A DNA stretch of 64,000 nucleotides from Roseivirga sp. E12. GTDB taxonomy: Bacteria; Bacteroidota; Bacteroidia; Cytophagales; Cyclobacteriaceae. The position numbers and the translations under genes are program-made. The stretch's first letter is position 1. Each line of letters opens with the position of its first letter. Location: NCBI RefSeq assembly GCF_017592825.1, contig NZ_JAGFMD010000007.1, positions 1 through 64,000 of the forward strand, in the 5' to 3' direction. Positions 9,606 through 23,068 of this stretch are shown one piece after another. The notes under the pieces are model-generated. The model had not been told where the DNA came from, ran no database searches, and saw only the letters and a program-made list of their open reading frames with translations.

Positions 9606-9698
9606 GACCGAATACTTTTATAACTAAATCTTTCGTTAAAAATAAAGTATCCAGGTCTACCATCAAACCATTACTAAAAAATTAGGTGTTTCCTCAGT

Positions 9699-9737
9699 GT
9701 TAAGAAATCTTAACGTTAATTAAGGTTAAAATAACCT
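9699..9737. promoter_or_regulatory. Two short dyads upstream of the permease gene
   Basis: GTTAAG-AAAT-CTTAAC (9699-9714) and AGGTTA-AAA-TAACCT (9723-9737) are small perfect inverted repeats about 95-130 bases upstream of the permease start at 9605. Both lie in the gap between that gene and the small RNA candidate, so they could bind a regulator of either one. The rest of 9606-9775 is AT-rich with no coding signal. Confidence 0.35.
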
Positions 9738-9775
9738 CATCAATGAAACTTTTGGGCCAAATTTGCATCTATATA

Positions 9776-9923
9776 GTAGGGTTTGTGTAGGAGCAGTTGG
9801 TATGATTATTGAAAGACACAAACACAATTGAATTTTCAGAATTACAGTCAGTAATTCTCTTCATATATAGTTAGTAGTTTATTTGTTTAGTAACCCGAGG
9901 AGTAGTTAACCTCGGGTTTTTTT
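9776..9923 (+). ncRNA. Candidate small regulatory RNA with intrinsic terminator
   Basis: This gene-free stretch ends in a clean terminator for which no coding gene exists on the + strand. Three hairpins are visible: GTTTGTGT (9781-9788) with ACACAAAC (9816-9823), GAATTAC (9839-9845) with GTAATTC (9851-9857), and the terminator stem at 9892-9918. A weak -7-like box (CAAATTTG, one mismatch to TAnnTTTG) lies shortly upstream of 9776, so the 5' end is only an estimate. The only ATG-started frame, at 9802, encodes 9 residues. The RNA family is not recognised. Confidence 0.5.
9892..9923 (+). terminator. Orphan rho-independent terminator
   Basis: AACCCGAGG (9892-9900) pairs with CCTCGGGTT (9910-9918) and is followed by a run of seven T to 9923. 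The T tract exists only on the + strand, and the neighbouring genes on both sides are on the - strand. It therefore ends a transcript that has no annotated gene, which is the main reason for the small RNA call. The stop codon of the gene at 9922-10419 overlaps its last bases. Confidence 0.8.
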
Positions 9924-10419
9924 ATTTCAAAGCTACTCTGTGCTTTATCACCTGTTCATAAAAATGGTGAATCCGAAACATTTGCTCAGCACCAACCTTC
10001 TGACCGGCTTGGGCAATCAAATACAAACCCAAGGCAATTGCGCCCATAACTGGTATGGCCCATAATATTGGGGCGGGCTTATCCAACATCAGCTGAGAAA
10101 GACCAAAGACACCAGCGAAGAGGGATAGGACACCAAGTGCGGCATAAGACATAAAGAACACTGCCCAGACACTAGGTTTCGGTCCGTAAAGGCCTCTCAC
10201 TTCCAAATTGTCTTCTGAGGTTTCTTCTAAAGTCAGCGTGAGTTGGGGAGACCAATAGTGCCGTTCTTCAGGTCTGATCTTGATGACGCAATACTGATCC
10301 GATACCAAACCTGTGAATTCATTTTCAGTATCAATCGCTTCTTGAATTCGCGTTCTAAACACCTCGGGGTTTCCGGGTATTTCTTCTTTAAATCTTGGCC
10401 TGATTCTAAGACTCGACAT
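9922..10419 (-). CDS. Small membrane protein of unknown function
   Basis: The 165-residue protein is not recognised. Residues 1-80 look like a soluble cytoplasmic domain (MSSLRIRPRFKEEIPGNPEV...), rich in charged residues and beta-prone stretches. Two hydrophobic helices follow, at about 83-108 (VWAVFFMSYAALGVLSLFAGVFG) and 116-138 (PILWAIPVMGAIALGLYLIAQ). They are followed by a short charged tail. No catalytic motif was found. It stands alone between the small RNA candidate and a divergent NTF2-like gene at 10535. The start is the first ATG of the frame; the gap of 115 bases to the divergent gene leaves room for both promoters. Confidence 0.7.
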   Translation of the reverse strand: MSSLRIRPRFKEEIPGNPEVFRTRIQEAIDTENEFTGLVSDQYCVIKIRPEERHYWSPQLTLTLEETSEDNLEVRGLYGPKPSVWAVFFMSYAALGVLSLFAGVFGLSQLMLDKPAPILWAIPVMGAIALGLYLIAQAGQKVGAEQMFRIHHFYEQVIKHRVALK

Positions 10420-10534
10420 CGTACTAAAGTTAGCAAATGCTCATCAATTCCTTAAAGGAAGAAATACATCCATTTCTGTCCCTTTCCGTTAACATAGATC
10501 GTTCACAATTCGAAACTTTTTAAACAATAACACT

Positions 10535-10903
10535 ATGAGTATACTCGCTTTAGAACAAGAATTACAAACCATGATGGGTCAGGGTCAAATGCTGGAGGCT
10601 TTTGACAAATTTTATGCTGATAATGTGGTAATGGTTGAAGCCACTGGCGAAGTCAGAGAAGGGAAAGCTTATAACCGAGAATTTGAAATTAAGTGGCTTG
10701 AGTCACTAGAAGGAATGCATGGAGGCGGTGTAACCGCTATGACCTCCAATGAGGAAACAGGCCATACCTGTACTGAAACTTGGGGAGACTTTAGTTTCAA
10801 AGGAGGTCAGCGAATGAAAATGGAGGAGGTTTCCGTCAAAAAATGGGAAGACGGTAAGGTTGTCCACGAACGCTTCTATTACGATACCAAAGGAATGGGC
10901 TAA
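10535..10903 (+). CDS. SnoaL/NTF2-like fold protein
   Basis: The 122 residues have the SnoaL-like pattern: an N-terminal helix, then FYADNVVMVEATGEVREGKA (a curved-sheet motif with the downstream RxGKxA-type turn), and beta strands ending in VSVKKWEDGKVVHERFYYD. The family holds polyketide cyclases, isomerases and many proteins of unknown role; no catalytic residues can be named. There is no signal peptide, so it is cytoplasmic. It is monocistronic and ends at a bidirectional terminator shared with the opposite NTF2-like gene. The role is unknown. Confidence 0.8.
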   Translation: MSILALEQELQTMMGQGQMLEAFDKFYADNVVMVEATGEVREGKAYNREFEIKWLESLEGMHGGGVTAMTSNEETGHTCTETWGDFSFKGGQRMKMEEVSVKKWEDGKVVHERFYYDTKGMG

Positions 10904-10921
10904 TTGAGATTGGTCCTAATT

Positions 10922-10947
10922 AAAGGGGCTCATTGAGCCCCTTTTTT
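10922..10947. terminator. Terminator between convergent NTF2-like genes
   Basis: AAAGGGGCTC (10922-10931) pairs with GAGCCCCTTT (10935-10944) around the loop ATT and is followed by further T. On the + strand the T tract is strong. On the - strand the tract is only TTTAATTA, so it should act mainly on the gene at 10535-10903. Confidence 0.8.
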
Positions 10948-10953
10948 ATTTCA

Positions 10954-11370
10954 CTACCTAATCGCTTCTCGGGTGAAAGACTTATTGATAATCTTCCATC
11001 CATCTTTAAGCTTTAGCAAAAGCATATAATCGGTGAACTTTGTGTTCCCTGAAACGATTTCAACCTTGGCATGGGCCGCATTGTTGACAATGTCTATCGA
11101 GATTATTTTACCTACTCTATCCCTAGCCTGACCTTCTTTGAAGTAACCGATATACTCGGCAATCGGTAGCCTTCTCTGACTACCATCCGGATTTACGGAA
11201 TACAAGGCCGCTGTTTCAGTAAAGGCCCTTTTAATTCGAGCGACTTGCCCTTTTGATGTCCCATCCATATAATCCATTAGGGTGGCTTCAACGGCTTCTT
11301 TGTCTGATTGGCCAAAGGCAATAAAGCTAAGACACAGGCAGGCGGACAGTGTTAGAATTGTTCTTCTCAT
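10954..11370 (-). CDS. Secreted NTF2-like protein (putative lumazine-binding type)
   Basis: The likely start is the ATG at 11370 (MRRTILTLSACLCLSFIAFGQ), which gives 138 residues with a proper signal peptide. An upstream ATG at 11412 would put 14 polar residues ahead of it. The mature part (EAVEATLMDYMDGTSKGQVARIKRAF ... WKIINKSFTREA) matches the 'putative lumazine-binding' subgroup of the NTF2 superfamily. This group is common in Bacteroidota as small periplasmic proteins, and despite the name lumazine binding is not shown for them. It converges on the SnoaL-like gene. The function is unknown. Confidence 0.8.
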   Translation of the reverse strand: MRRTILTLSACLCLSFIAFGQSDKEAVEATLMDYMDGTSKGQVARIKRAFTETAALYSVNPDGSQRRLPIAEYIGYFKEGQARDRVGKIISIDIVNNAAHAKVEIVSGNTKFTDYMLLLKLKDGWKIINKSFTREAIR

Positions 11371-11466
11371 GTTTGTTGATTTTTTGTTTTTAATCTCATT
11401 CATAGCGCTCAATTACCAAAAAGAATTTGGAAAGGTCTATGCTAAAAACAGAGTGGTTCTTCAGAT

Positions 11467-12528
11467 TTATAAATCTGAAGCTTGATCGCGGTAAGCAGCA
11501 GGGGTTTGGCCTGTAGCTTTCTTAAAAGTAGTATGGAATGTAGAGGGTGAATTGAAACCACAATCAAAGCCAATGGCTTCTACAGTAAGGTGTTGCTGTC
11601 TACGCAAGAGGTCTTTCGCTATTTCTACTCTGAAAGAGTTGACAAGTTGAGCAAAATTCTGTCCTAGCTGTTCATTGATAAAAGCCGAAAATTGATGAGA
11701 GGTCAAACCGACCATTTTGGCCAATGCAGGCATTTTCAAATCGGGATCTTTGTACAGTTCATCCTCCATGATAGTAGCTTTTATTTTTTCTCTTAGCCGA
11801 TCGATTTCTGCTTGAGGCATCAGTTTGATCTCGGCTTTTGACTTTTTGGAAGCAACTATCTGTTTGCGATTTGTTATAAGGAGCCAGGCCAATAAATAAA
11901 CTAAGAAGGAGAAGGTTATTGAGCCTGTTAAGTAAGATGTAAAGCTTGATGTAAAATAGGCCAGCCAAATGAGAAAGACACCTAAGACCACTCCGTAAGT
12001 CCAATACTCTTCTGGAAAAGACTTTTTGATTATGAACTTTTGCTTAATCAATAGATAAATAGAATAAAGGAGGTATAGCGCCCAATAGTAATAAATGCCT
12101 CTTACAATTTTTAAACTCCAGAAATAACGATTTTCACCATAAGACTCATAAAAAATGGCATAGGCAGCCAGAAGCACCATTGGGGTCAGGTGTAGAAGAC
12201 TCTTGGGGTCAAATGATTTCTGCCCTGTGATCTGCGACTTTGTGAAATAAAAGCACATTGGACCAATTGCCACGCACGCGAGTAAGCCTATAAGGATGTA
12301 GTTCTCATTAAGCCCACTATCAAAATGAAAGAATACGGACTTCCCGATTCTAATGACGAGCGCCATTAATAAGAGTCCCAAATAGATATTGGTATAAGAT
12401 CTACCTTTCTTACTGAAGAGGAAGTAGCTTGTCAAAAAGACTCCATTGAAGACTCCAAGCAGGCTGAAAACAAATAGATATTCTCTTGAAATGGCTAATG
12501 AAGTTAAATTGAGGATATTAACAGCATA
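11467..12528 (-). CDS. AraC-family regulator with N-terminal membrane domain; start codon uncertain
   Basis: The C-terminal ~110 residues are an AraC/XylS DNA-binding domain with two helix-turn-helix units (LAKMVGLTSHQFSAFINEQLG and VEAIGFDCGFNSPSTFHTTFKK). In front lies a domain of about six or seven membrane helices, as in membrane-bound AraC regulators of Bacteroidota. The first usual start codon is TTG at 12435. However, the frame stays open to 12528 and that upstream stretch encodes YLFVFSLLGVFNGVFL, which is the expected first helix of this family. No ATG, GTG or TTG occurs there, so the start may be ATT (12492), CTG or another rare codon. The coordinates give the whole open frame. It probably senses a membrane or external signal; targets are unknown. 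Confidence 0.8.
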   Translation of the reverse strand, partial: YAVNILNLTSLAISREYLFVFSLLGVFNGVFLTSYFLFSKKGRSYTNIYLGLLLMALVIRIGKSVFFHFDSGLNENYILIGLLACVAIGPMCFYFTKSQITGQKSFDPKSLLHLTPMVLLAAYAIFYESYGENRYFWSLKIVRGIYYYWALYLLYSIYLLIKQKFIIKKSFPEEYWTYGVVLGVFLIWLAYFTSSFTSYLTGSITFSFLVYLLAWLLITNRKQIVASKKSKAEIKLMPQAEIDRLREKIKATIMEDELYKDPDLKMPALAKMVGLTSHQFSAFINEQLGQNFAQLVNSFRVEIAKDLLRRQQHLTVEAIGFDCGFNSPSTFHTTFKKATGQTPAAYRDQASDL

Positions 12529-12575: not shown

Positions 12576-13448
12576 TTAACCGGGCAAAGGGATATATCCA
12601 GACTCACCCGGCACCATCTCAAATTTCTGGTCTTTCCAGTCTTGTTTTGCTTCCTCGATAAGATTTTTTTCAGTAGAAACGAAGTTCCAGTAAATGTGTC
12701 TCTCTTCTGCAAACGGCTCTCCTCCAAACAAGAAGACGTGTGTGTTTTCACCAAGAACTATTTTGCAGATATCCTCTTCTTTGGATACCAGCATATTTCC
12801 TTTCTCAATACGTTCGCTGCAAGCTTCTATGTAGCCATCAACGATAACGATGCCTACCTCACCTTTGACTTTGCCCTTTACATCAAGTACGGCCTTGTCT
12901 TTTGCTTTGGCTTCGACCATAAACAAATCAGAGAAAACCGGAACGGGAGATTCTTTTCCATAGCCCTTATCCGCCACCAAAGTAAAGTCAATGCCACCCT
13001 CATACCACCGCGATAGTTCATCGGCTGGTGTAAATGAGAATTCAGGCTTCATTTTTTGCAGGGCCTTGGGCAAAGCCACCCAAATCTGATAACCATGAAC
13101 TGGATATTCGCCTCCATCTCGAAGGGCAGCAGGCGTTCTTTCTGTATGAACAATACCTTTACCAGAAGTCATAAAGCCAACCGATCCCGGAGTTACTAAT
13201 TGCTCAGTGCCTAGGGTATCTCTGTGCATAATTTGCCCCTCAAGTAGGTAGGTCAATGTTGACAAACCAATATGAGGGTGCTGCCCAATATCCATATAAT
13301 GACCTGGCTTTATGGTGGAGGGACCCATATGATCAATAAAGATGAATGGCCCTACCATGCGCTTTTTACGGAATGGGATTAGTCTACCTACCAAAAAGTC
13401 GCCAATGTCGCGACTGCGTTCTTCAATGATTAAACCAGTATTTGACAT
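12576..13448 (-). CDS. Pirin family protein
   Basis: The 290 residues carry the bicupin pirin fold with its metal ligands in place: His57 and His59 in QHPHIG, His101 and Glu103 in IVHTER. The N-terminal domain has the family blocks FIDHMGP and TYLLEGQIMHRD. Some bacterial pirins act as quercetin dioxygenases or modulate pyruvate dehydrogenase; which applies here cannot be told. The gene starts 15 bases after the acetyl-CoA synthetase gene on the same strand, so cotranscription is likely and fits a link to acetyl-CoA metabolism. Confidence 0.92.
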   Translation of the reverse strand: MSNTGLIIEERSRDIGDFLVGRLIPFRKKRMVGPFIFIDHMGPSTIKPGHYMDIGQHPHIGLSTLTYLLEGQIMHRDTLGTEQLVTPGSVGFMTSGKGIVHTERTPAALRDGGEYPVHGYQIWVALPKALQKMKPEFSFTPADELSRWYEGGIDFTLVADKGYGKESPVPVFSDLFMVEAKAKDKAVLDVKGKVKGEVGIVIVDGYIEACSERIEKGNMLVSKEEDICKIVLGENTHVFLFGGEPFAEERHIYWNFVSTEKNLIEEAKQDWKDQKFEMVPGESGYIPLPG

Positions 13449-13463
13449 ATGGAGTTATCTAAG

Positions 13464-15368
13464 TCATTTTTGAATACCCGCCCCTTCAATAATTTTATCC
13501 ACTACTTCGGGGTTGAGCAAGGTAGAGGTATCACCTAAGCTTGAAATGTCACCACTAGCCACCTTTCTCAAAATTCGCCTCATGATTTTACCTGAACGCG
13601 TTTTCGGAAGGCCAGGAACGATTTGAACCATATCCGGTTTAGCGATCGGCCCGATAATTTTTCTAACCGTATCCTTGATTTCATCTTTTAAACTCTGCTC
13701 AGAGCGACCTTCCATATCGCAGATGACATAGGCATAAATGCCTTGTCCTTTGACATCATGTGGATAGCCGACTACTGCCGATTCAATGACTTTTGGATGC
13801 TCATTGATGGCGTTTTCGACTTCTGCGGTGCCCATCCTATGACCTGATACATTGATCACATCATCAACTCTACCGAGGATTCTTAAGTAGCCATCGTGAT
13901 CTCTTTTAGCACCATCTCCCGTAAAGTACATGCCTTTATAGGCCGAAAAGTAAACGTTCTTACATTTTTCATGATCTCCATAAGTGGTTCTGATCATAGA
14001 CGGCCAGGGAAATTTAATGCAGAGGTTTCCTTCCACATTATTTCCTTTTAGTTCGTTGCCATCGGCATCAACAATAATGGGCTGAATACCGGGTAGCGGA
14101 AGAGAAGCATGTGCTGGTTTGTTGGGAGTAATTCCCGCCAAAGCCGAGATCATAATACCACCAGTTTCTGTTTGCCACCAAGTGTCAACCAATGGGCATT
14201 TGCCTTTGCCGATATGGTCGTGATACCAATGCCAAGCCTCTTCGTTAATCGGTTCGCCCACCGAGCCAATGACTTTTAAAGATTCTAGAGAATAAGGTTC
14301 GATAGGTTCCAAGCCAAACACCTGTAATGCCCTAATGGCTGTTGGCGCTGTATAGAACTGGTTGACTTTGTATTTGTCGACAATCTCCCAAAACCTACCA
14401 GCATGGGGAAAAGTCGGTACCCCTTCGAACATTAAGGTTGTACCTCCTGCCAAAAGTGGCCCGTAGACGATATAGGAATGGCCAGTAATCCAACCGATAT
14501 CTGCCGTGCACCAATAGACATCACCAGGCGTATATTGAAAGACATTCGAAAAGGAATATTCGGCATACACCATATAACCTCCAGTAGTATGGACCACCCC
14601 TTTGGGCTTACCAGTCGAACCAGAGGTATAAAGAATGAAGAGCATGTCTTCGGAATCCATTTCTTGTGCTTTATAAGCTGTCGATTGCCCCTCGATAGCA
14701 TCATGCCACCAAATATCTCTACCGTCTTTCATAGTGACTTGGTCACCGGTACGCTTCAGTACAATTACCTTTTCAATACTTGGAGTATTTTCAACGGCCT
14801 CGTCAACCACGGCTTTCACCGGAATTTGCTTGGCTCCTCTGAAGTTACCGTCCGAAGTCAACACAGCCTTGGCCTCACAGTCATTAATTCGATCAGCCAA
14901 TGACGAAGAAGAAAAACCAGCGAATACCACAGAGTGGATAGCACCTATTCTTGCACAAGCAAGCATGGCAACCGCTGCTTCAGGCACCATAGGCATATAG
15001 ATAATGACCCTGTCTCCTTTTCTAACACCTTGAGCTTCCAAAGTATTACAGAACTGGTTGGTCATTTCATATAGCTCGTGATAGGTTACTATTCGGTTTG
15101 CGTCATTCGGGTCATTTGGTTCCCAAATAATGGCAGGAGTGTCACCTTTAGTGTGTAGGTGTCTTTCGAAAATGTTTTCGGTAATGTTGAGCTTACCATT
15201 GATAAACCACTTGACATCCGGACCATCAAAACCCCATGATAATGTCTCGTCCCAATGCTTTCTCCAATGAAAAGATTCTCCTATTCTAGCCCAGAAAGTC
15301 TCGGGGTCTAAAACACTTTTTTGGTATTCATGAAAATACCCTGACAGGGTCTGAATCTTGTTGCTCAT
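13464..15368 (-). CDS. acs: Acetate-CoA ligase (acetyl-CoA synthetase)
   Basis: The 634-residue length is usual for Acs. The AMP-binding motif YTSGSTGKPKGVVH is present, as is the acetate-pocket region VDTWWQTETGG, the hinge GRVDDVINVSGHRMGTAEVE and the C-terminal PKTRSGKIMRR. The lysine of the last motif is the one needed for adenylation and is controlled by acetylation in other bacteria. The enzyme makes acetyl-CoA from acetate, ATP and CoA in the cytoplasm. The start MSNKIQTLSGYFHEY is the expected N-terminus. It leads a two-gene operon with the pirin gene. Confidence 0.97.
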   Translation of the reverse strand: MSNKIQTLSGYFHEYQKSVLDPETFWARIGESFHWRKHWDETLSWGFDGPDVKWFINGKLNITENIFERHLHTKGDTPAIIWEPNDPNDANRIVTYHELYEMTNQFCNTLEAQGVRKGDRVIIYMPMVPEAAVAMLACARIGAIHSVVFAGFSSSSLADRINDCEAKAVLTSDGNFRGAKQIPVKAVVDEAVENTPSIEKVIVLKRTGDQVTMKDGRDIWWHDAIEGQSTAYKAQEMDSEDMLFILYTSGSTGKPKGVVHTTGGYMVYAEYSFSNVFQYTPGDVYWCTADIGWITGHSYIVYGPLLAGGTTLMFEGVPTFPHAGRFWEIVDKYKVNQFYTAPTAIRALQVFGLEPIEPYSLESLKVIGSVGEPINEEAWHWYHDHIGKGKCPLVDTWWQTETGGIMISALAGITPNKPAHASLPLPGIQPIIVDADGNELKGNNVEGNLCIKFPWPSMIRTTYGDHEKCKNVYFSAYKGMYFTGDGAKRDHDGYLRILGRVDDVINVSGHRMGTAEVENAINEHPKVIESAVVGYPHDVKGQGIYAYVICDMEGRSEQSLKDEIKDTVRKIIGPIAKPDMVQIVPGLPKTRSGKIMRRILRKVASGDISSLGDTSTLLNPEVVDKIIEGAGIQK

Positions 15369-15600
15369 AGGGAGAGAATTTACAGAGGGATAAATTGAGA
15401 AAATTTTGAGGATTATAAAACTGATTCATGCAGACAGTTACCAGAGTTTCATCAAAAACGGTGGGCGACTGGTGCATTGAATTCTCAAAATAAGTAGTTC
15501 AATAATAGAAAATTGCTGTTCGTCAAAAGGCTGTGCTGAAGCCAGTTTTATTCCCTAGGTTGTATAAAGATTCGACACTATCACTTAAATCATTTTCACC

Positions 15601-15741
15601 ATGATAAAGCTTACAGAAACTGAATCTAGTCAGGTCATCGGAGGCGACCGTTGTGCCCGTTTATACCGTAGGAGATTAAAGCTAAAACCTATGTCTAGAA
15701 GGTATATCAGAAACATGCGTAAATATCGAAGGGTCTGCTAA
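15601..15741 (+). CDS. Double-glycine leader peptide precursor with very basic core (putative bacteriocin or signal peptide)
   Basis: This 46-residue frame begins MIKLTETESSQVIGG, which fits the Bacteroidota GG-type leader pattern (K-L-(T/S)-x-x-E-x-x-x-V/I-x-GG). Cleavage after Gly15 would release a 31-residue core. The core has 11 Arg, 3 Lys and one Asp, about +13 net, three Tyr, and Cys at positions 18 and 46, which could form one ring-closing disulfide. Motifs in the core include RLYRRRLKLKP and RRYIRNMRKYRRVC. The gene ends 51 bases before a C39-peptidase ABC exporter on the same strand, the usual partner that cuts at GG and exports. The core family is not recognised. An antimicrobial or signalling role is inferred from charge and context only. 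Confidence 0.75.
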   Translation: MIKLTETESSQVIGGDRCARLYRRRLKLKPMSRRYIRNMRKYRRVC

Positions 15742-15792
15742 TGGCCATGCTAGATTGTTCTACTCTTCCTTTTTAGAATTGACTTCCAACAA

Positions 15793-17991
15793 GTGAATAA
15801 AGAAGCGCTGCTTAAAAAAGCACTGGTGCTCCAACATGATCATAAAGATTGTGGAGCTGCTTGCTTATTGATGGCCATTAAGTGGTATGGCTATCATGAT
15901 GCCTTAGAACATATAAGGGTTCTCTCTGGAACCAATGGAGATGGCGTTAGCCTGCTGGGTCTCCAACAAGCAGCCATAGAAGTAGGATTTAATGCAGAGG
16001 CTTTCAAAGCATCTCTGCATGATTTAGAATTAATCCCAGAACTTTGCATCCTGCACGTAACCAAAAAAGGAGCCTTTAACCATTTTGTCTTATGTCTTGG
16101 AAAGGAGAACGGCAAATGGTTGATAGCTGACCCCGATGATGGGGTAAAGACATACACCGACAAGCAGTTGATGAAAGAATGGGAGCAGGGGATATTCTTG
16201 AGGTTAGAGAAACCAACAAAACTGAATCTTGAAAAGAGAAGAAGACATCTTTTCAAGGGTTGGGTCTTGCCACTTTTTGAAAAGCACAGAACGCGATTAA
16301 TATTGATCGTGGGGCTGGGTATTATTCATGCCATCTTACTTTTTACGACTGCCATCTTTACCGAGCGACTAGTAGATGAATTACTCCCTTCACAAGACAA
16401 AAGCTTAATTGTAAAAAGCATTCTATTGTGGGCATTCTTACTTCTTTTGGCCCTAGGGGTTTCATATCTGCGTAACTATAGCCTTGCCATTTTTAGCCGG
16501 GAGGTAAACGCTAGTTTGATCAAAGAGTTCTTCGGAAAGCTCTTATATCTACCCAAACCATTTTTTGATAGTAAAAAGACCGGAGACCTAGTTGTTAGGC
16601 TCGAGGATGTGGAGGACATTGAGGAATCGGCTTCCAAATGGATTGAAGATGGGTTTATCAGTCTGCTCGTTGTCTTGGTAGCATTAGGTCTGCTGTTTAT
16701 TTATAGTACTCAAATCGCACTGATTAACTCAGTGCTTTTGCCTTTGCTTTTTGGAGTAATCCTTCTTTTAAAGGGGAGAATAAAGAAGTCGCAACGTCAG
16801 GCCATGGCCAGTCATGCCGCGAATAATGCAAACTATATAGATGCCATTACGGGCATGAATACAATCAAATTGAGGCAGGCAGAAGTAAGATTTACAAAAC
16901 ATGCCTTGAAGCTCTATCGATCCTTTAGAAACAAAGTCTTTCGGGCCGAAAGAGTGAATATGGACTTTGGCTTATTGGTACAACTCTTGGCCATTAGTAT
17001 TACCATCGCTGTAATCGCAATTTCTAGTATTCAAGTGCTCTATGGGAGTCTGCAAATGGGAAATTTTCTGGCAATTATCTCTATAACATCAATTGCTTCA
17101 ATAAATACGACAAACTTGGCTTACGCCTATATCGACTTTGAGCAAGCAAGAATCTCTTTTGAAAGAATGCATGAACTGGTTGGTCAAAGAACCGAGGATG
17201 TTAGTGACCCAGGACCACTTTTGTTAAGGTCTAAAAACTCACTGTTCATCAAGTCGGTGTCCTTTTCATTTCCTGGGCAAGCGGAACTCCTCAAGTCTGT
17301 TTCCATGCAATTGGACTCCGGTAAAATATGCGTGCTGTTGGGTGAAATAGGTAGTGGTAAAAGCACCTTGCTTAACGTGATTAGCACGCTATATCAGCCC
17401 GACCAAGGAGTGATAATGTTCAATGATCAGAACGTTCATGAATTCCCAACAAATTGGCGTAGAGTGATAGGCTTGGTCCCACAAGAAACGAAGATTTTCA
17501 ATACTACTTTTTGGCAAAATGTTGGGGTGAAATCAATTGGAGAGGAAAATGATATGGCTCGAACAAGGGTAGAACACTTGATCGATCAACATGGCTTTGG
17601 CCCTATTGTAGATGCTTTGCCCTTGGGTATAGATACTGTGTTGGGGGAAAACGGAGTGAAATTGTCTGGGGGACAAAAAAGGATTTTGGGCTTAATGAGG
17701 GCCCTTTACACCAAGCCAAGCGTTTTGCTGCTGGACGAAGTGACCACTTCGCTGGACCAAAATTGCCTTAACCTAGTTACGGAAATACTGAAGAAAGCCA
17801 AGCTGAGCATGCCAATTTTGCAAATAACCCATAGTCCAGTTGTAGCCTCTCAGGCAGACTATGTTTATCTCCTAGAAAAAGGGAAAACGGAGGTTCATGG
17901 TACACCCGATCAACTCCTTGAAAGGGACAATTTCTTTAGCCAGTTTTTCGAAAAAGGCATCTATTCAAGAATTAAAAAAGCCTCTGCTTAG
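15793..17991 (+). CDS. Peptidase-containing ABC exporter (C39 peptidase, membrane and ATPase domains)
   Basis: The 732 residues hold the three PCAT domains in order. The C39 protease (about 1-125) has Gln14, Cys20 in DCGAAC, His97 in FNHFV and Asp113 in ADPDDG, all catalytic positions kept. A six-helix exporter domain covers about 160-450. The ATPase has Walker A GEIGSGKS (517-524), signature LSGGQ (from 624), Walker B VLLLDE (644-649) and the H-loop His in ITHSP. It should cut GG leaders and pump the core peptide out. The start is GTG. No HlyD-type adaptor or TolC gene is adjacent, so export may stop at the periplasm or use partners encoded elsewhere. The natural cargo is the peptide at 15601-15741. 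Confidence 0.93.
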   Translation: MNKEALLKKALVLQHDHKDCGAACLLMAIKWYGYHDALEHIRVLSGTNGDGVSLLGLQQAAIEVGFNAEAFKASLHDLELIPELCILHVTKKGAFNHFVLCLGKENGKWLIADPDDGVKTYTDKQLMKEWEQGIFLRLEKPTKLNLEKRRRHLFKGWVLPLFEKHRTRLILIVGLGIIHAILLFTTAIFTERLVDELLPSQDKSLIVKSILLWAFLLLLALGVSYLRNYSLAIFSREVNASLIKEFFGKLLYLPKPFFDSKKTGDLVVRLEDVEDIEESASKWIEDGFISLLVVLVALGLLFIYSTQIALINSVLLPLLFGVILLLKGRIKKSQRQAMASHAANNANYIDAITGMNTIKLRQAEVRFTKHALKLYRSFRNKVFRAERVNMDFGLLVQLLAISITIAVIAISSIQVLYGSLQMGNFLAIISITSIASINTTNLAYAYIDFEQARISFERMHELVGQRTEDVSDPGPLLLRSKNSLFIKSVSFSFPGQAELLKSVSMQLDSGKICVLLGEIGSGKSTLLNVISTLYQPDQGVIMFNDQNVHEFPTNWRRVIGLVPQETKIFNTTFWQNVGVKSIGEENDMARTRVEHLIDQHGFGPIVDALPLGIDTVLGENGVKLSGGQKRILGLMRALYTKPSVLLLDEVTTSLDQNCLNLVTEILKKAKLSMPILQITHSPVVASQADYVYLLEKGKTEVHGTPDQLLERDNFFSQFFEKGIYSRIKKASA

Positions 17992-18003
17992 AAGAGGTCT
18001 TTT
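17977..18003. terminator. Bulged hairpin between convergent exporter and permease genes
   Basis: AAAG-CCTCT (17977-17985) pairs with AGAGG-t-CTTT (17993-18002) with one bulged T. The stop codon of the exporter lies in the loop. A-rich sequence before and T after the hairpin would give U tracts in both directions, so it may end both transcripts. Confidence 0.5.
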
Positions 18004-18005
18004 AA

Positions 18006-20366
18006 CTATTCATAGCGCAAACTCTTGACTGGGTTGGCATATACTGCTTTTAGTGAATGGTAACTCACGGTTAGAACTGTAATGAGTATAGAAGCAGCCC
18101 CAGCTATTAAAAATACAGAAGCGCCAATATTTACTCTATACTCGAAGGCATTCAGCCAGTCACTCATGAAAAAGTAAGCCAAGGGCGAAGCAATTAGAAA
18201 CCCCAGGGCTACCAGACCTGCAAAACCTTTGGTCATAGTAAGGCACAAGTGGATTAAGCCGGCACCCAGAACTTTCCGTATGCCGATTTCTTTGATGCGC
18301 TGCTCTGCAGCAAAACTGGCAAGGCCGAAGAGGCCAAGTAATGAGATGAATATGGCAATGATTGAAAAGTAGTTGGCTAGCTGTCCAATCGTATTTTCAC
18401 TACGGTAGAGTTGATCGTAACTTTCATCCAAAAACCTATAGGTAAATGGATAGTTGGGATTCAAGGTTTTCACGATACCCTCTAAGTAAGAAATATTCTC
18501 AGCGGTTTGGCCACCAGATATTTTAACGAAAGCAAATTCGCTAGACTCGGGCCTTAGGCTTATCACGATAGGCTCAATGCCTGTATGTAAAGAGCTAAAA
18601 TGAAAATCTTTGACTATGCCAATCACTTTGCCTTGTCTTCCCCAAAAAGTCACTGGATGATTAAGAGGGTTTTCCACATTCATTTTGAGTGCCGTTTGCT
18701 CATTAATGATCACATGGGCGGTATCACTTTGTAAGTTTGGATCGAAAGACCTGCCTTCAATGATTTCCATATCTAGGGTTTCAATGAAATTGTGACCAAC
18801 CTGTAACACATTAAATAGTGTTTCCTGAGAGTCGGCCTTTCCTTCCCACCGATAGCCGCCAGATGTAGATGTGCTTATGGATATAGGCGCATTACTGGCA
18901 AGGCTAGAATTTGAAAAATTTGGGTTGTCTTTTATTTGTGACAATAGAATTTCTTGCTTGTCAGGATTTCTCAACTCCCCTTCAAGTGGAATGTAGATTA
19001 TATTTTCAGTCTTGTACCCAAGGTTTTTGCTTTTGATAAAGCTCATTTGCTGATGGATTACCAATGTCGCAATGATTAGAAAAGTCGAAACCAAAAACTG
19101 GAAGACCACCAGTCCTTTTCGAACTCCCTGAGACCAACCTGAAATTCTAAAAGTACCTTTTAAGACTTGAATAGGAGAGAAACCCGAAAGTAACAAAGAA
19201 GGATATAAGCCTGCCAAAAGGCCTACTGACAAGCCAATGCCTACTAACTGAGTCACTTGACTTCCATTCGTAAGTGAAAACTCAATGTTACGCCCTATCA
19301 ATTCATTTAGTGCTGGAAGGACTAATAGTATGAGCAGCATGGCGACCAATGACGAGATGAGCGCCATAAGTATTGACTCCCCCATGAACTGGAAAATCAG
19401 TAATCGTCTGGATGAACCGACAACTTTTTTTACACCTACCTCTTTCGCTCGCTTGGTAGAACGAGCAGTCGCAAGGTTCATGAAGTTGATACTAGCAATT
19501 ATCAGGATGAAGAAGGCCACTGCCATGAATAGGCGCACATAAACGATTCTGCCACCAGACTGAATGCCATCTTCATAGTTGGAGTACAAGTATGTCTCTC
19601 CATAATTTTGTAAAAACAAGTCAATGTTTGACCCCTCACTGTTCTCTCTTATAAATGATTTAACCTTCTTGTTAAAGTCAGTTACAGACACGTTAGGTTG
19701 AAGTTTTATGAGCCCTCTTACTCCATTGTTACCCCAATCTTCTAACCATGTATTGGTTTTGGCCCAAGGGTCATACGGCATCACAAAATCAAACTGTAAG
19801 CTTGAGTTATTCGGAACGTTTTCAAAAACGCCACCAATGCTATGCTCTCCCCAACCGTTAATTGTAACCACTTGACCCAAGGCAGTTTCAGTGCCGAAAA
19901 GGCGCTCTTTGAGTGATTGAGAAATATAAACCTTGTCCGGTTGACTTAACGAATTCTCCTTTTCACCTTCAATGAAGTCTACATCAAAAATTTGGAAAAA
20001 GTCCGAGCTAGCAATACGTCCTTTTTCTTTAAAGCTTTGGTCTGCAAGAATAAATAGTCGCTCTTGTTCCCATGTGAACTGAGCCATATAGTCAACTTCA
20101 GGCATTTGAGCCTTTATGGCATCCTTTAATGGTCCAGGGTTGGCCGTTGTAGTGAAAACCGTATTACCATAGTGTTGATTTTCGAATACCTGGTAAATGC
20201 TACCGATGTCTTGATGAAATTTGTTCATCGACTTTTCGCCCTGAACATAAAGTAAGAGTAGGGTGGCTGATGCAATTCCCACCGTTAGACCTAATACGTT
20301 TAAAAGCGCATAGCCACGCTCTTTCCAAAAGACTCGGAGTGCTGTTTTGAGGATATTTTTGACCAT
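18006..20366 (-). CDS. FtsX-like ABC permease, without N-terminal prefix domain
   Basis: This 786-residue permease is the closest relative of its upstream neighbour at 20444. Both start their core with MVKN-x-x-KTALR-x-FWKERGY and share blocks such as STSGGY-x-WEGK, VIGIVKDFHFSSLH and FAAEQRIKEIG-x-RKVLGA. Unlike the neighbour it lacks the ~75-residue prefix domain and begins directly at the core. It is the third and last permease of the operon led by the PadR gene at 25708, 77 bases after the preceding gene. A 14-bp inverted repeat encloses its start codon. The pair looks like a tandem duplication. Substrate unknown. Confidence 0.92.
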   Translation of the reverse strand: MVKNILKTALRVFWKERGYALLNVLGLTVGIASATLLLLYVQGEKSMNKFHQDIGSIYQVFENQHYGNTVFTTTANPGPLKDAIKAQMPEVDYMAQFTWEQERLFILADQSFKEKGRIASSDFFQIFDVDFIEGEKENSLSQPDKVYISQSLKERLFGTETALGQVVTINGWGEHSIGGVFENVPNNSSLQFDFVMPYDPWAKTNTWLEDWGNNGVRGLIKLQPNVSVTDFNKKVKSFIRENSEGSNIDLFLQNYGETYLYSNYEDGIQSGGRIVYVRLFMAVAFFILIIASINFMNLATARSTKRAKEVGVKKVVGSSRRLLIFQFMGESILMALISSLVAMLLILLVLPALNELIGRNIEFSLTNGSQVTQLVGIGLSVGLLAGLYPSLLLSGFSPIQVLKGTFRISGWSQGVRKGLVVFQFLVSTFLIIATLVIHQQMSFIKSKNLGYKTENIIYIPLEGELRNPDKQEILLSQIKDNPNFSNSSLASNAPISISTSTSGGYRWEGKADSQETLFNVLQVGHNFIETLDMEIIEGRSFDPNLQSDTAHVIINEQTALKMNVENPLNHPVTFWGRQGKVIGIVKDFHFSSLHTGIEPIVISLRPESSEFAFVKISGGQTAENISYLEGIVKTLNPNYPFTYRFLDESYDQLYRSENTIGQLANYFSIIAIFISLLGLFGLASFAAEQRIKEIGIRKVLGAGLIHLCLTMTKGFAGLVALGFLIASPLAYFFMSDWLNAFEYRVNIGASVFLIAGAASILITVLTVSYHSLKAVYANPVKSLRYE

Positions 20367-20418
20367 TGGGCTTTGATTTGAGTTTCGAGGTTACCCCCAA
20401 GACGAGCCCAATGGTCAA
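20359..20418 (-). promoter_or_regulatory. 14-bp inverted repeat enclosing the start codon of the last permease
   Basis: TTGACCATTGGGCT (20359-20372) has its exact reverse complement at 20405-20418, with 32 bases between. In the - strand mRNA the second arm contains the start codon (CCAATGGTCAA). A stem would hide the start site and could lower or control translation. It might instead be a trace of duplicated start-region sequence. Confidence 0.5.
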
Positions 20419-20443
20419 TCATTACAATAAGATCTATTTACTC

Positions 20444-23026
20444 TCATTCATAGCGCAAGCTCTTCACCGGGTTGGCATAAGCAGCTTTCAGTGCATGATA
20501 ACTCACCGTGAGAATGGTAATCAGTAATGAAATACTGGCCGCTAGGATAAAAACCGAGACCCCTATTTGTGTTCTATATTCGAAGGATTCGAGCCAGTTA
20601 TTCATGAATGTATAGCCCAGGGGAGCTGCCAGTACAAAACCTATCCCGACTAAGAAAAGAAAGCCCTTTGACATCAGAAGGATCAGGTTAAAAATATTGG
20701 CTCCTAGAACCTTTCTTACCCCTATCTCCTTTATGCGCTGCTCAGCAGCGAAACTTGATAGGCCAAATAGACCGAGCAAGGATATGAAAACTGCTATGCC
20801 TGAAAAATAATCAGTCAAAATGCTTATGGTGGATTCGCTTTGGTAAAGCTGTTCATAGCTTTCGTCTACAAAACTGTAGTCAAAAGGATAATTCGGGTTG
20901 AGTTCAGTAACTAAACCCTCTAGGTACTCTAGACTCTCTGGAATGTTCTGACCAGTGATTCTCAAGGTCAGTGTAGAAGTAAAATTTGGACGATAGGAGA
21001 TCAACATGGGTTCGATACTCTCATGTAGTGAGCTAAAGTGAAAGTCTTTGACGATGCCTATTACACGGCCGGTTCTGTTCCAAAAAGTAACCGGCACTGA
21101 AAACGGGTCTTCCAAGTTCATGATTTTGGCGGTCTGTTCATTGATGATCAGATTCATAGTGTCGGTGGCGAGGTTCTTATCAAAACCTCTTCCCTCAATA
21201 ATTTCCATTCCATAGGTATCAGTGAAGTCAGCGTCCGATCTGATGATGTAAAAGTTGTTATCATGGTCACCTTCTTTTCCTTCCCAGGAATAACCGCCTG
21301 AAGTAGAACTCTCAATACCAATGGGCGTGCCTGACGAAAAGGAGGCATGTGTAAAATTTGGGTTGGATAGAATAGAGGTTTTTAATTGCTCGCGTATTGA
21401 TTCGTTTTGGAGAACGCCCTCCACTGGTAAGGTTACAAGGTGCTCCTTCTCATAGCCGAGGTTCTTACCCTTTATGTAATCCATTTGGCTACGAATAATA
21501 AGCGTAGAAATGATTAGTACAGTAGAGATGGTAAACTGAAAAACCACCAAACCCTTCCGCATACCATTAGACCATCCTGAACTCTTAAATGATCCCTTTA
21601 AAACACTCAAGGCTTTAAAGCCAGATAGAACAAACGAAGGGTAAATGCCAGCTAAAATGCCTACCCCGAGACCAAGGGATACCAGCAAAAGAGATTGATC
21701 CCATTGGATAAGCGAAAAAGTCATTTCCTTTCCTACCAAATGATTAAGGGGTTGGATGACAATGGATATCAAGAATCCAGCTAAGAGGGTCGATATCAGA
21801 GCCAATAGTACCGACTCTAACATAAATTGAAACTGCAATTGACTTCTAGTAGAGCCTACCACCTTCTTAACACCGACTTCTTTGGCACGCTTGGTTGACC
21901 TTGCCGTAGAGAGATTCATGAAGTTGATTACGGCTATTAGTAGAATGAAAAAGGCGACTGCCGTAAAGAGCTTGACGTATGTAATTCTTCCACCGACAAT
22001 GACTCCATTTTCATATTTGTTGTATAAATAGCGGTCTTTAAAAGGCTGAACAAAAATTCTTATTATAGATTCCTCATCGGGCATTTTGCCATCTACATAA
22101 CCCTCTATCTTGGCATTAAAATCATGCATATCTACACCGGGCATGAGCTTCGCAAGGCCCCTGATGCCATTATTACCCCATTCCTCTACCCAATTATTTC
22201 TCACACGCCATGGTTCGTATGGCATAATAAAATCAAAATCAATGGTGGTTTCGCTAGGTACATCTTCGAAAACGCCTCCAACCTGATATTGTCCCCAGCC
22301 GTCAATCTCTATTGTCTGTGATAGTGCTGCTTGATTCCCAAATATTCGCTCCTTAAAACTTTTTGAAATGTAGACTTTGGTGGGGTCTGTTAGTGAATTC
22401 TCCTTTTGACCCTCTAGGAAATCAACATCAAAAATGTGGAAGAAATCTTCGCTGGCCCATCGACCTGTCTCCTTATAACCTTGACCATTTAATACGAAAA
22501 GCATTTCTTCTGGCCATGTAAATGCTGCCATGTATTCTACTTCTGGCATGTCACCCTTGAATGCGGTAACCAAAGGGCCAGGGTTGGATTCGTAGGAGTA
22601 AATTGCTCCTGGATACGTCTGATGTTCCATGACTTGATAAATATTATCAATGTCTTTATGGAATTGATTGACAGACTTTTCGGACTGCACATATAGGAGT
22701 AGAAGCATACTGGCGGCAATGCCTACAGTGAGCCCCATTATATTCATGACTGAATAACCACGCTCTTTCCAAAAGATCCGCAATGCTGTTTTAAATATGT
22801 TTTTGACCATAGCTGTATAGATTGTTTGTCTAGTGTTGAGGTGCTTTCGTAGTAGCGAAAGTCGAAAGAGCAGTATGACATCAACCAAAAATTTGGCCTC
22901 GGCATAGCGCTTTCCTTTCCTCAAAAAATTTGATTCATAGTATTCATCCAGATCTCCAAGAATGTCTTCTTGAAAGTCAGGATGACAGTATCCTCTGAAT
23001 AGCCAAAGGGCAAATCGTTTTAACAT
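20444..23026 (-). CDS. FtsX-like ABC permease with N-terminal prefix domain
   Basis: The 860 residues begin with a cytoplasmic prefix, MLKRFALWLFRGYCHPDFQE followed by DILGDLDEYYE, the 'permease prefix domain' found in PadR-linked Bacteroidota permeases. The core starts at MVKNIFKTALRIFWKERGY near residue 73 and has two periplasmic MacB-type domains, each followed by FtsX membrane blocks. The end is NPVKSLRYE. It is the middle gene of the 25708-18006 operon, 42 bases after the preceding permease. It has no ATP-binding domain of its own. The prefix may bind an ATPase or regulator encoded elsewhere; that is inference. Confidence 0.92.
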   Translation of the reverse strand: MLKRFALWLFRGYCHPDFQEDILGDLDEYYESNFLRKGKRYAEAKFLVDVILLFRLSLLRKHLNTRQTIYTAMVKNIFKTALRIFWKERGYSVMNIMGLTVGIAASMLLLLYVQSEKSVNQFHKDIDNIYQVMEHQTYPGAIYSYESNPGPLVTAFKGDMPEVEYMAAFTWPEEMLFVLNGQGYKETGRWASEDFFHIFDVDFLEGQKENSLTDPTKVYISKSFKERIFGNQAALSQTIEIDGWGQYQVGGVFEDVPSETTIDFDFIMPYEPWRVRNNWVEEWGNNGIRGLAKLMPGVDMHDFNAKIEGYVDGKMPDEESIIRIFVQPFKDRYLYNKYENGVIVGGRITYVKLFTAVAFFILLIAVINFMNLSTARSTKRAKEVGVKKVVGSTRSQLQFQFMLESVLLALISTLLAGFLISIVIQPLNHLVGKEMTFSLIQWDQSLLLVSLGLGVGILAGIYPSFVLSGFKALSVLKGSFKSSGWSNGMRKGLVVFQFTISTVLIISTLIIRSQMDYIKGKNLGYEKEHLVTLPVEGVLQNESIREQLKTSILSNPNFTHASFSSGTPIGIESSTSGGYSWEGKEGDHDNNFYIIRSDADFTDTYGMEIIEGRGFDKNLATDTMNLIINEQTAKIMNLEDPFSVPVTFWNRTGRVIGIVKDFHFSSLHESIEPMLISYRPNFTSTLTLRITGQNIPESLEYLEGLVTELNPNYPFDYSFVDESYEQLYQSESTISILTDYFSGIAVFISLLGLFGLSSFAAEQRIKEIGVRKVLGANIFNLILLMSKGFLFLVGIGFVLAAPLGYTFMNNWLESFEYRTQIGVSVFILAASISLLITILTVSYHALKAAYANPVKSLRYE

Positions 23027-23068
23027 GGTGTTGTTAGAGACGAAGTGGGATGCTTTTTATAACGGGGA

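What the first reader, a model, noticed from the sequence alone, without database searches (positions are those of the whole stretch)
15601..15741. Unannotated GG-leader peptide with a highly basic core next to a C39 exporter
A 46-residue frame has a typical Bacteroidota GG leader (KLTETESSQVIGG) and a 31-residue core with about +13 net charge, three Tyr and two Cys at its ends. It is 51 bases upstream of a complete peptidase-containing exporter. The combination matches a bacteriocin or signalling peptide system, and I do not recognise the core. Leader-and-exporter logic is established knowledge; the role is inference.
Basis: partly seen in the sequence, partly recalled or inferred. Interest (0 to 1): 0.85.

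Follow-up and report, generated by a model that had tools for sequence, protein, structure and literature searches.

The report
Arginine-rich two-cysteine secreted peptide with exporter
A tiny, strongly conserved, very positively charged peptide gene sits in front of the pump that should cut and export it, forming a stripped-down bacteriocin-like unit with distant relatives in other Bacteroidota; what the peptide does is not yet known.

Summary
The frame is real and is a gene. Orthologues precede the same exporter in two other genomes of the genus. Against the nearer one, 23 codons differ silently and 2 by amino acid; the peptide is 44/46 identical, its exporter about 64%. Leader, core, charge (+13), cysteines and 51-base gap are as described; the exporter is complete.

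The exporter groups (99/99) with five flavobacterial exporters that also carry short GG-type peptides, mostly Arg-rich with Cys near both ends; one shares GGDRCSRL with the G002 orthologue. Core-only similarity is clear for two of nine such peptides, so a wider family is probable, not proven. Other loci of this exporter type mostly carry a TM protein (22 of 23) and a thiol oxidoreductase (19 of 23), a bacteroidetocin-like layout; the three window-type loci have neither.

Best reading: a two-gene bacteriocin-like secretion unit for a disulfide-closed, perhaps helical-hairpin, cationic peptide. Export is well supported by sequence; antibacterial action is inference. Signalling or action on the producer is not excluded, and the strong conservation leaves room for either. 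New variant of a known kind.

The parts
15497..15532 (+). Conserved upstream block with two GTTC half-sites 21 bp apart; possible regulatory site
   Evidence: Conserved in G000, G001 and G002, starting 104, 104 and 103 bases before the ATG; one exact match per genome. The spacing alone is no more common in the window than chance.
15601..15741 (+). 46-aa precursor peptide gene, stop included
   Evidence: Orthologues in G001 and G002 and strong bias to silent change.
15601..15645 (+). 15-residue double-glycine leader MIKLTETESSQVIGG
   Evidence: GG conserved in 3 of 3 orthologues; cleavage after GG is inferred from family logic.
15646..15738 (+). 31-residue core, net +13; Cys codons at 15652-15654 and 15736-15738
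   Evidence: both Cys invariant in 9 of 9 aligned peptides of A7 (L095's two peptides left out).
15793..17991 (+). Peptidase-containing ABC exporter, 732 aa: C39 about 15820-16212, transmembrane about 16297-17094, ATPase about 17290-17745
   Evidence: Pfam; C20, H97, D113 and Q14 invariant in 6 of 6 aligned exporters (their catalytic roles are recalled); Walker motifs and LSGGQ present.
18006..20366 (-). Convergent MacB-like FtsX permease, 786 aa; membership of the unit doubtful
   Evidence: Pfam MacB_PCD and FtsX. Such permeases lie downstream in G001 and G002 too, but the genome has at least 150 MacB_PCD domain matches.

Best explanation
A two-gene secretion unit. The 46-aa precursor is recognised by its GG leader; the exporter's C39 domain cuts after GG and pumps the 31-aa core across the inner membrane (supported by sequence, conservation and pairing, not by experiment). 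Outside the cytoplasm the two terminal cysteines pair and close two short Arg-rich helices around a central Pro-x-Ser turn (inferred). The peptide then acts as a bacteriocin-like antibacterial on related Bacteroidota, drawn by charge to the anionic envelope and binding a conserved target there (inferred, from the bacteroidetocin-like layout of related loci). How it crosses the outer membrane is open; flavobacterial relatives encode a MacB-like permease and an HlyD-type adaptor, which suggests a second step there (inferred).
For: Conserved peptide-exporter pair in 3 of 3 genomes that have this exporter, of 19 in the genus. dN 0.043 for the peptide against 0.28 for the exporter, G000/G001. Complete exporter. 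Exporters with family-type peptides form one clade, 99/99, in a tree of 26. Core similarity to L145a: 0 of 3000 shuffles as good; L145b: 11 of 3000. Related loci have the TM protein (22 of 23) and thiol oxidoreductase (19 of 23) of a bacteroidetocin-like layout (PMC6671954 passages). Permease and adaptor follow the exporter in 5 of 5 flavobacterial family loci and 0 of 18 others.
Against: No activity, transcript or mass is shown. No immunity gene was recognised, though bacteroidetocins lack one too. TM protein and thiol oxidoreductase are absent in 3 of 3 window-type loci, so nothing recognised makes the disulfide. Five of nine cores show no significant similarity to the window cores. Near-invariance between G000 and G001 is unlike an arms-race toxin. 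The hairpin is unmodelled; the helical moment of the first half of the window core is unremarkable (p 0.30; second half 0.03). The leader type also occurs in another GG system of the genome, so leader similarity alone is weak.
Confidence: 0.5

Rival explanations
1. The secreted peptide acts on the producer's own envelope (a periplasmic or surface effector that binds LPS, peptidoglycan or a membrane protein), not on competitors.
For: Peptide conserved about as well as the neighbouring acetyl-CoA synthetase (44/46 against 613 of 635 codons, stop counted) while the exporter is 64% identical; no immunity gene recognised; no outer-membrane adaptor in the window-type loci.
Against: Only 3 of 19 genus genomes have it, so it is not a general need; the related exporters carry diverse bacteriocin-like cargo.
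Confidence: 0.2
2. A signalling peptide sensed by kin or by the producer.
For: Strong conservation of the core; a conserved single-copy upstream block with 21-bp spaced half-sites, the spacing used by LytTR regulators (PMC6193735 passages).
Against: No kinase, LytTR or receptor gene recognised beside it; the half-site letters do not resemble the listed LytTR repeats.
Confidence: 0.15
3. The frame is an attenuator-type leader or a chance frame, not a secreted peptide.
For: Small frame with 11 Arg codons directly before a gene.
Against: Protein-level conservation of leader and core with silent change; no Rfam match at E <= 1; the 5' region folds no better than shuffles (z 1.21, -1.27, -0.65); no terminator-like site listed between the two genes.
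Confidence: 0.03

Closest known systems
Bacteroidetocins, class IIf (PMC6671954; target BamA, PMC8546649; passages of both, and section 14 of the first)
   Same: Bacteroidota; 15-residue GG leader; small Cys-containing basic core; ABC exporter with peptidase; no immunity gene; the wider loci of this exporter type show peptide, TM protein and thiol oxidoreductase
   Different: Core 31 aa, +13, two Cys, against 42 aa, +2 or +6, four Cys in bacteroidetocins A and B; window-type loci lack TM protein and thiol oxidoreductase; homology to bacteroidetocin genes not tested
Bactofencin A, class IId (PMC6081437, passages)
   Same: Very cationic short peptide with one disulfide and a C-terminal Cys
   Different: 22 aa, Cys7-Cys22, charge mostly in an N-terminal tail, Lactobacillus, dltB-type immunity; no relation shown
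Gallocin A peptides, class IIb (PMC10100652, passages)
   Same: Modelled helical hairpin closed by a disulfide, GG leader
   Different: Two peptides, few charged residues, Streptococcus, own immunity peptide; no relation shown
MacAB-TolC export of periplasmic disulfide-bonded peptides (review PMC5985334, passages)
   Same: A MacB-like permease and HlyD-type adaptor follow the exporter in 5 of 5 flavobacterial family loci
   Different: Pfam shows no ATPase domain in that permease; the window has only convergent permeases and no adaptor was found

Membership tests
GG-leader cargo of a C39 exporter | Short leader ending in GG, conserved in relatives | tested here: met
GG-leader cargo of a C39 exporter | Adjacent complete peptidase-containing exporter | tested here: met
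GG-leader cargo of a C39 exporter | Cleavage after GG and export | not testable with these tools
   Needs mass spectrometry
Bacteroidetocin (class IIf) | Leader of 15-16 aa with GG and at least two Cys in the core | tested here: met
Bacteroidetocin (class IIf) | TM protein gene in the locus (present in all 19 published regions as the paper states; thiol oxidoreductase in most) | tested here: not met
   Profiles built from related loci: 0 of 3 window-type loci; equivalence of these TM proteins to the published ones not tested
Bacteroidetocin (class IIf) | Sequence relation to bacteroidetocins A and B | not tested
Proposed DxC[SA]RL peptide family (this work) | Exporters of one clade | tested here: met
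   8 of 8 exporters in one clade, 99/99, tree of 26
Proposed DxC[SA]RL peptide family (this work) | Core similarity beyond composition | tested here: inconclusive
   Clear for L145a and L145b; L095a and L096 suggestive; five of nine not significant
Bacteriocin (any class) | Antibacterial activity | not testable with these tools
   No assay

The most novel reading that the evidence does not exclude
The peptide founds a new class of secreted, disulfide-closed, Arg-rich helical hairpins of Bacteroidota, more conserved than its own exporter because it binds an invariant target. It is released by the C39 exporter into the periplasm and, at least in Flavobacteriaceae, carried across the outer membrane by a dedicated MacB-like permease and adaptor in a second step.
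Probability: 0.25. Interest if true: 0.75.

Novelty: new variant of a known kind. Interest (0 to 1): 0.5.

Why it matters
The bacteroidetocin papers leave open how such peptides leave the cell across the outer membrane and how producers survive them (PMC6671954 and PMC8546649, passages). A minimal two-gene unit, beside relatives with an extended operon that adds a MacB-like permease and an adaptor, makes both questions testable. A peptide conserved better than its exporter points to a fixed target.

Tried and rejected
Rfam at E <= 1 gave nothing for 13000-20000. Pfam and NCBIfam gave nothing for the window peptide at E <= 1; for relatives one irrelevant weak match, GrpE at E 0.034. PDB profile search: best E 0.47, a designed protein. 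Plasmids: two weak partial hits, E 0.7, under an alcohol dehydrogenase annotation. Genome contigs with the peptide: 39 stretches matched a pattern, none confirmed. RNA folding upstream: no better than shuffles. [quoted passage not shown] The MacB-like permease as part of the window unit: kept only as a doubtful lead, because the genome has at least 150 such domain matches (150 of 208 candidates scored), and the profile of the flavobacterial permease did not list the G002 permease next to the exporter (three best hits printed per locus, two shown). The flavobacterial exporters' missing LSGGQ was first read as degenerate; it is PSGGE with Walker motifs present. Weak peptide matches (E 0.00016 to 1) were not pursued beyond fetching four of their regions (L089-L092), which were not analysed. 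L100 (Flavivirga, 30%) and the other weaker loci were only passed through a motif screen in part.

Rows dropped: in the first tree my motif filter missed nine loci; seven (L086, L093-L096, L125, L145) were added to the second tree, L018 and L020 stayed out, and L011, L012, L015 were removed. Not in the tree: L126, L130, L131 (in-frame stop), L151 (exporter split in two frames), L133 and the remaining loci. One search left out L144 (contig of the same length as L096's, same genes), L133 and L150. Profiles were built from rows of the same set (12, 11, 5 and 5 rows), so those rows match by construction; the same holds for the A1 and A7 rows. A7 leaves out the two L095 peptides and the L096 frame.

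Full report
Observation. The 46-aa frame at 15601-15741 (+) is as described: a 15-residue leader ending in GG, a 31-residue core with net +13, Cys at core positions 3 and 31, three Tyr, 51 bases before a 732-aa exporter. The exporter has Peptidase_C39, ABC_membrane and ABC_tran domains. Q14, C20, H97 and D113 of the peptidase are invariant in six aligned exporters; their catalytic roles are recalled. Walker motifs and LSGGQ are present.

It is a gene. In two other genomes of the genus (G001, G002) the same frame lies directly before the orthologous exporter. The peptides are 44/46 and 27/46 identical with the window's. Between G000 and G001, 21 codons are the same, 23 differ silently and 2 change an amino acid; base differences by codon position are 6/1/22. 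Peptide dN is 0.043 (NG86, dS saturated; YN00 gives 0.046 with dS 1.29) against 0.28 for the exporter (NG86, dS saturated). The neighbouring acetyl-CoA synthetase (Pfam ACAS_N and AMP-binding) is identical at 613 of 635 codons' residues, stop counted. So the peptide is held about as well as a housekeeping enzyme while its exporter differs at 265 of 731 aligned residues.

Distribution. A profile of the three orthologues (A1) matches strongly in 3 of 19 genus genomes and in the same 3 of 390 genomes drawn from the order (these rows are in the model; all other matches have E 0.00016 or weaker). A nine-row profile (A7) gives, at E <= 0.01 in 395 genomes of the class, the window's genome (strong, and a weak second place at its other GG system) and one weak match, G732 at 0.003. 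In 349 genomes of the family of G738 it gives G803 (its rows are in the model) and two weak matches, G796 and G1106; the G796 match is the leader of an unrelated glycine-rich peptide. It missed G849, whose contig has the same length as that of L096 and so holds a family-like frame, so diverged members escape this search. The exporter at 49% or more occurs in 3 of 59 relatives searched, 19 of them of the genus, the window's genome included. The unit is rare. No tool named the organism; that it belongs to the Cytophagales is my inference from the kinship tables.

Neighbourhood. In G000 and G001 the unit lies between the acetyl-CoA synthetase gene (minus strand) and MacB-like FtsX permeases (convergent, minus strand) with a PadR regulator behind them; G002 keeps permeases and PadR, with other genes between the unit and the synthetase (in G001 and G002 read by sequence likeness). 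The genome has at least 150 MacB_PCD domain matches, so such a permease as a neighbour carries little weight. A terminator-like hairpin on both strands separates exporter and permease (17980-17998).

Upstream. A block at 15497-15532 is conserved in all three genomes, with two GTTC half-sites 21 bp apart, starting 104, 104 and 103 bases before the ATG. Two overlapping patterns of the block each match exactly once per genome; with three mismatches a few more places appear, as they do for reversed control patterns. The half-site spacing by itself is no more common than chance in the window (3 found, 1.89 expected), and it is absent before the first peptide of 5 of 5 flavobacterial loci. LytTR regulators bind 9-bp repeats mostly 12 bp apart (PMC6193735, passages), the same spacing; the letters do not resemble those listed. 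This is a lead only.

Wider relatives. A scan of genome contigs with the three exporters gave 23 loci, four of them flavobacterial at 34-36% identity, L093-L096, and one at 30%, L100, not followed. A search of 349 genomes with the L094 exporter gave 10 at E <= 1e-120, among them L145 of G803 (58%) and L144 of G849 (66%). Before the operons of L093-L096 and L145 lie short GG-type peptides. L145 has three, two starting MKTLSLNESSSVMGGD[RK]CSRL and one MKSIELNTLSEIIGGDYCSRI; L094 has one; L093 two, one with AG in place of GG; L096 one frame with no ATG (ATT in the expected place); L095 two that fit poorly, one with SG or AS in place of GG. The stretch GGDRCSRL is identical in G002 and L145a. Whole-peptide alignments of the window peptide with L094 and L093b beat nearly all of 2000 shuffles, but mostly through the leader. 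Core-only profile test, shuffles of 3000 at least as good: L145a 0, L145b 11, L095a 24, L096 55, L094 436, L093b 586, L095b 1474, L093a 2071, L145c 2803. After allowing for nine tests only L145a and L145b stand. Leaders alone are weak evidence: another GG system of the window's genome (L088) has leaders such as ISQVESSQIMGG.

Exporter tree. In a tree of 26 exporters the three window-type and five flavobacterial exporters form one clade, 99/99, in 100% of 200 bootstrap trees. This supports common descent of the system without using the peptides, although the branches leading to the two groups are long (1.1 and 1.2) and L095's peptides fit poorly.

Operon content. Profiles of the TM protein and the thiol oxidoreductase find them in 22 of 23 and 19 of 23 loci of other exporters and in 0 of 3 window-type loci. 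The MacB-like permease and HlyD-type adaptor directly after the exporter occur in 5 of 5 flavobacterial family loci and 0 of 18 others; the window-type loci have only distant permease matches and no adaptor. The related loci resemble bacteroidetocin regions: peptide, TM protein, thiol oxidoreductase, ABC exporter with peptidase, no immunity gene (PMC6671954, passages and section 14). The equivalence of the TM proteins was not tested. The window-type unit has only peptide and exporter.

How it may work. Cleavage and export follow from the family logic and the conserved pairing. The helical moment is notable (p <= 0.03) in 5 of 10 half-core segments tested; in the window core only in the second half (0.03; first half 0.30), and in neither half of G002. 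A disulfide-closed helical-hairpin bacteriocin (gallocin A, PMC10100652, passages) and a highly cationic one-disulfide bacteriocin (bactofencin A, PMC6081437, passages) show that each trait occurs in bacteriocins; neither is shown to be related. In flavobacterial relatives the permease and adaptor suggest a second step across the outer membrane, as MacAB-TolC does for a periplasmic disulfide-bonded peptide (review PMC5985334, passages). Pfam shows no ATPase domain in that permease and I saw no ATPase gene beside it in the frame lists, so this is a hypothesis.

Verdict. A real gene and very probably a secreted peptide; antibacterial action about even; signal or self-acting peptide possible. By operon content it is not a bacteroidetocin as published, though it may work like one. 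No paper describing this peptide showed up in seven library searches, seen as listings of the best papers only; none searched for its letters, and the library holds open-licence papers only.

Noticed in passing
L088:6188-7600 (+) with an exporter frame at 9341-11542 (-), G000:C32: A second GG-leader system in the same genome: four tandem 77-80 aa precursors, three with ESS-type leaders ending in MGG, near another C39-type exporter (27% identical to the window's). The 239-aa frame next to that exporter has no Pfam match at E <= 1e-5.
   Followed up: partly
whole genome G000; in the window e.g. 7218-9605, 18006-25714, 27044-32301: At least 150 MacB_PCD domain matches in one 4.7-Mb genome (150 of 208 candidates scored), most in frames of about 800-900 aa, in long tandem runs: a large expansion of MacB-like FtsX permeases.
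   Followed up: no
window 15497-15532: Single-copy conserved upstream block with GTTC half-sites 21 bp apart, at the same distance from the ATG in three species; possible regulator site.
   Followed up: partly
L083:9931-10128, L084:12001-12420, L085:13584-13766, L125:4403-5806: Other exporters of this type carry quite different GG- or GS-leader peptides, in L125 as six tandem frames: a varied cargo repertoire.
   Followed up: no
L126, L130, L131 (G059, G738, G126) and L151 (G863): Exporter frames broken by an in-frame stop or split in two frames: decay or sequence errors.
   Followed up: no
L096:2752-2922: Family-like peptide frame with no ATG, GTG or TTG before the leader; ATT stands in the expected place.
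   Followed up: no
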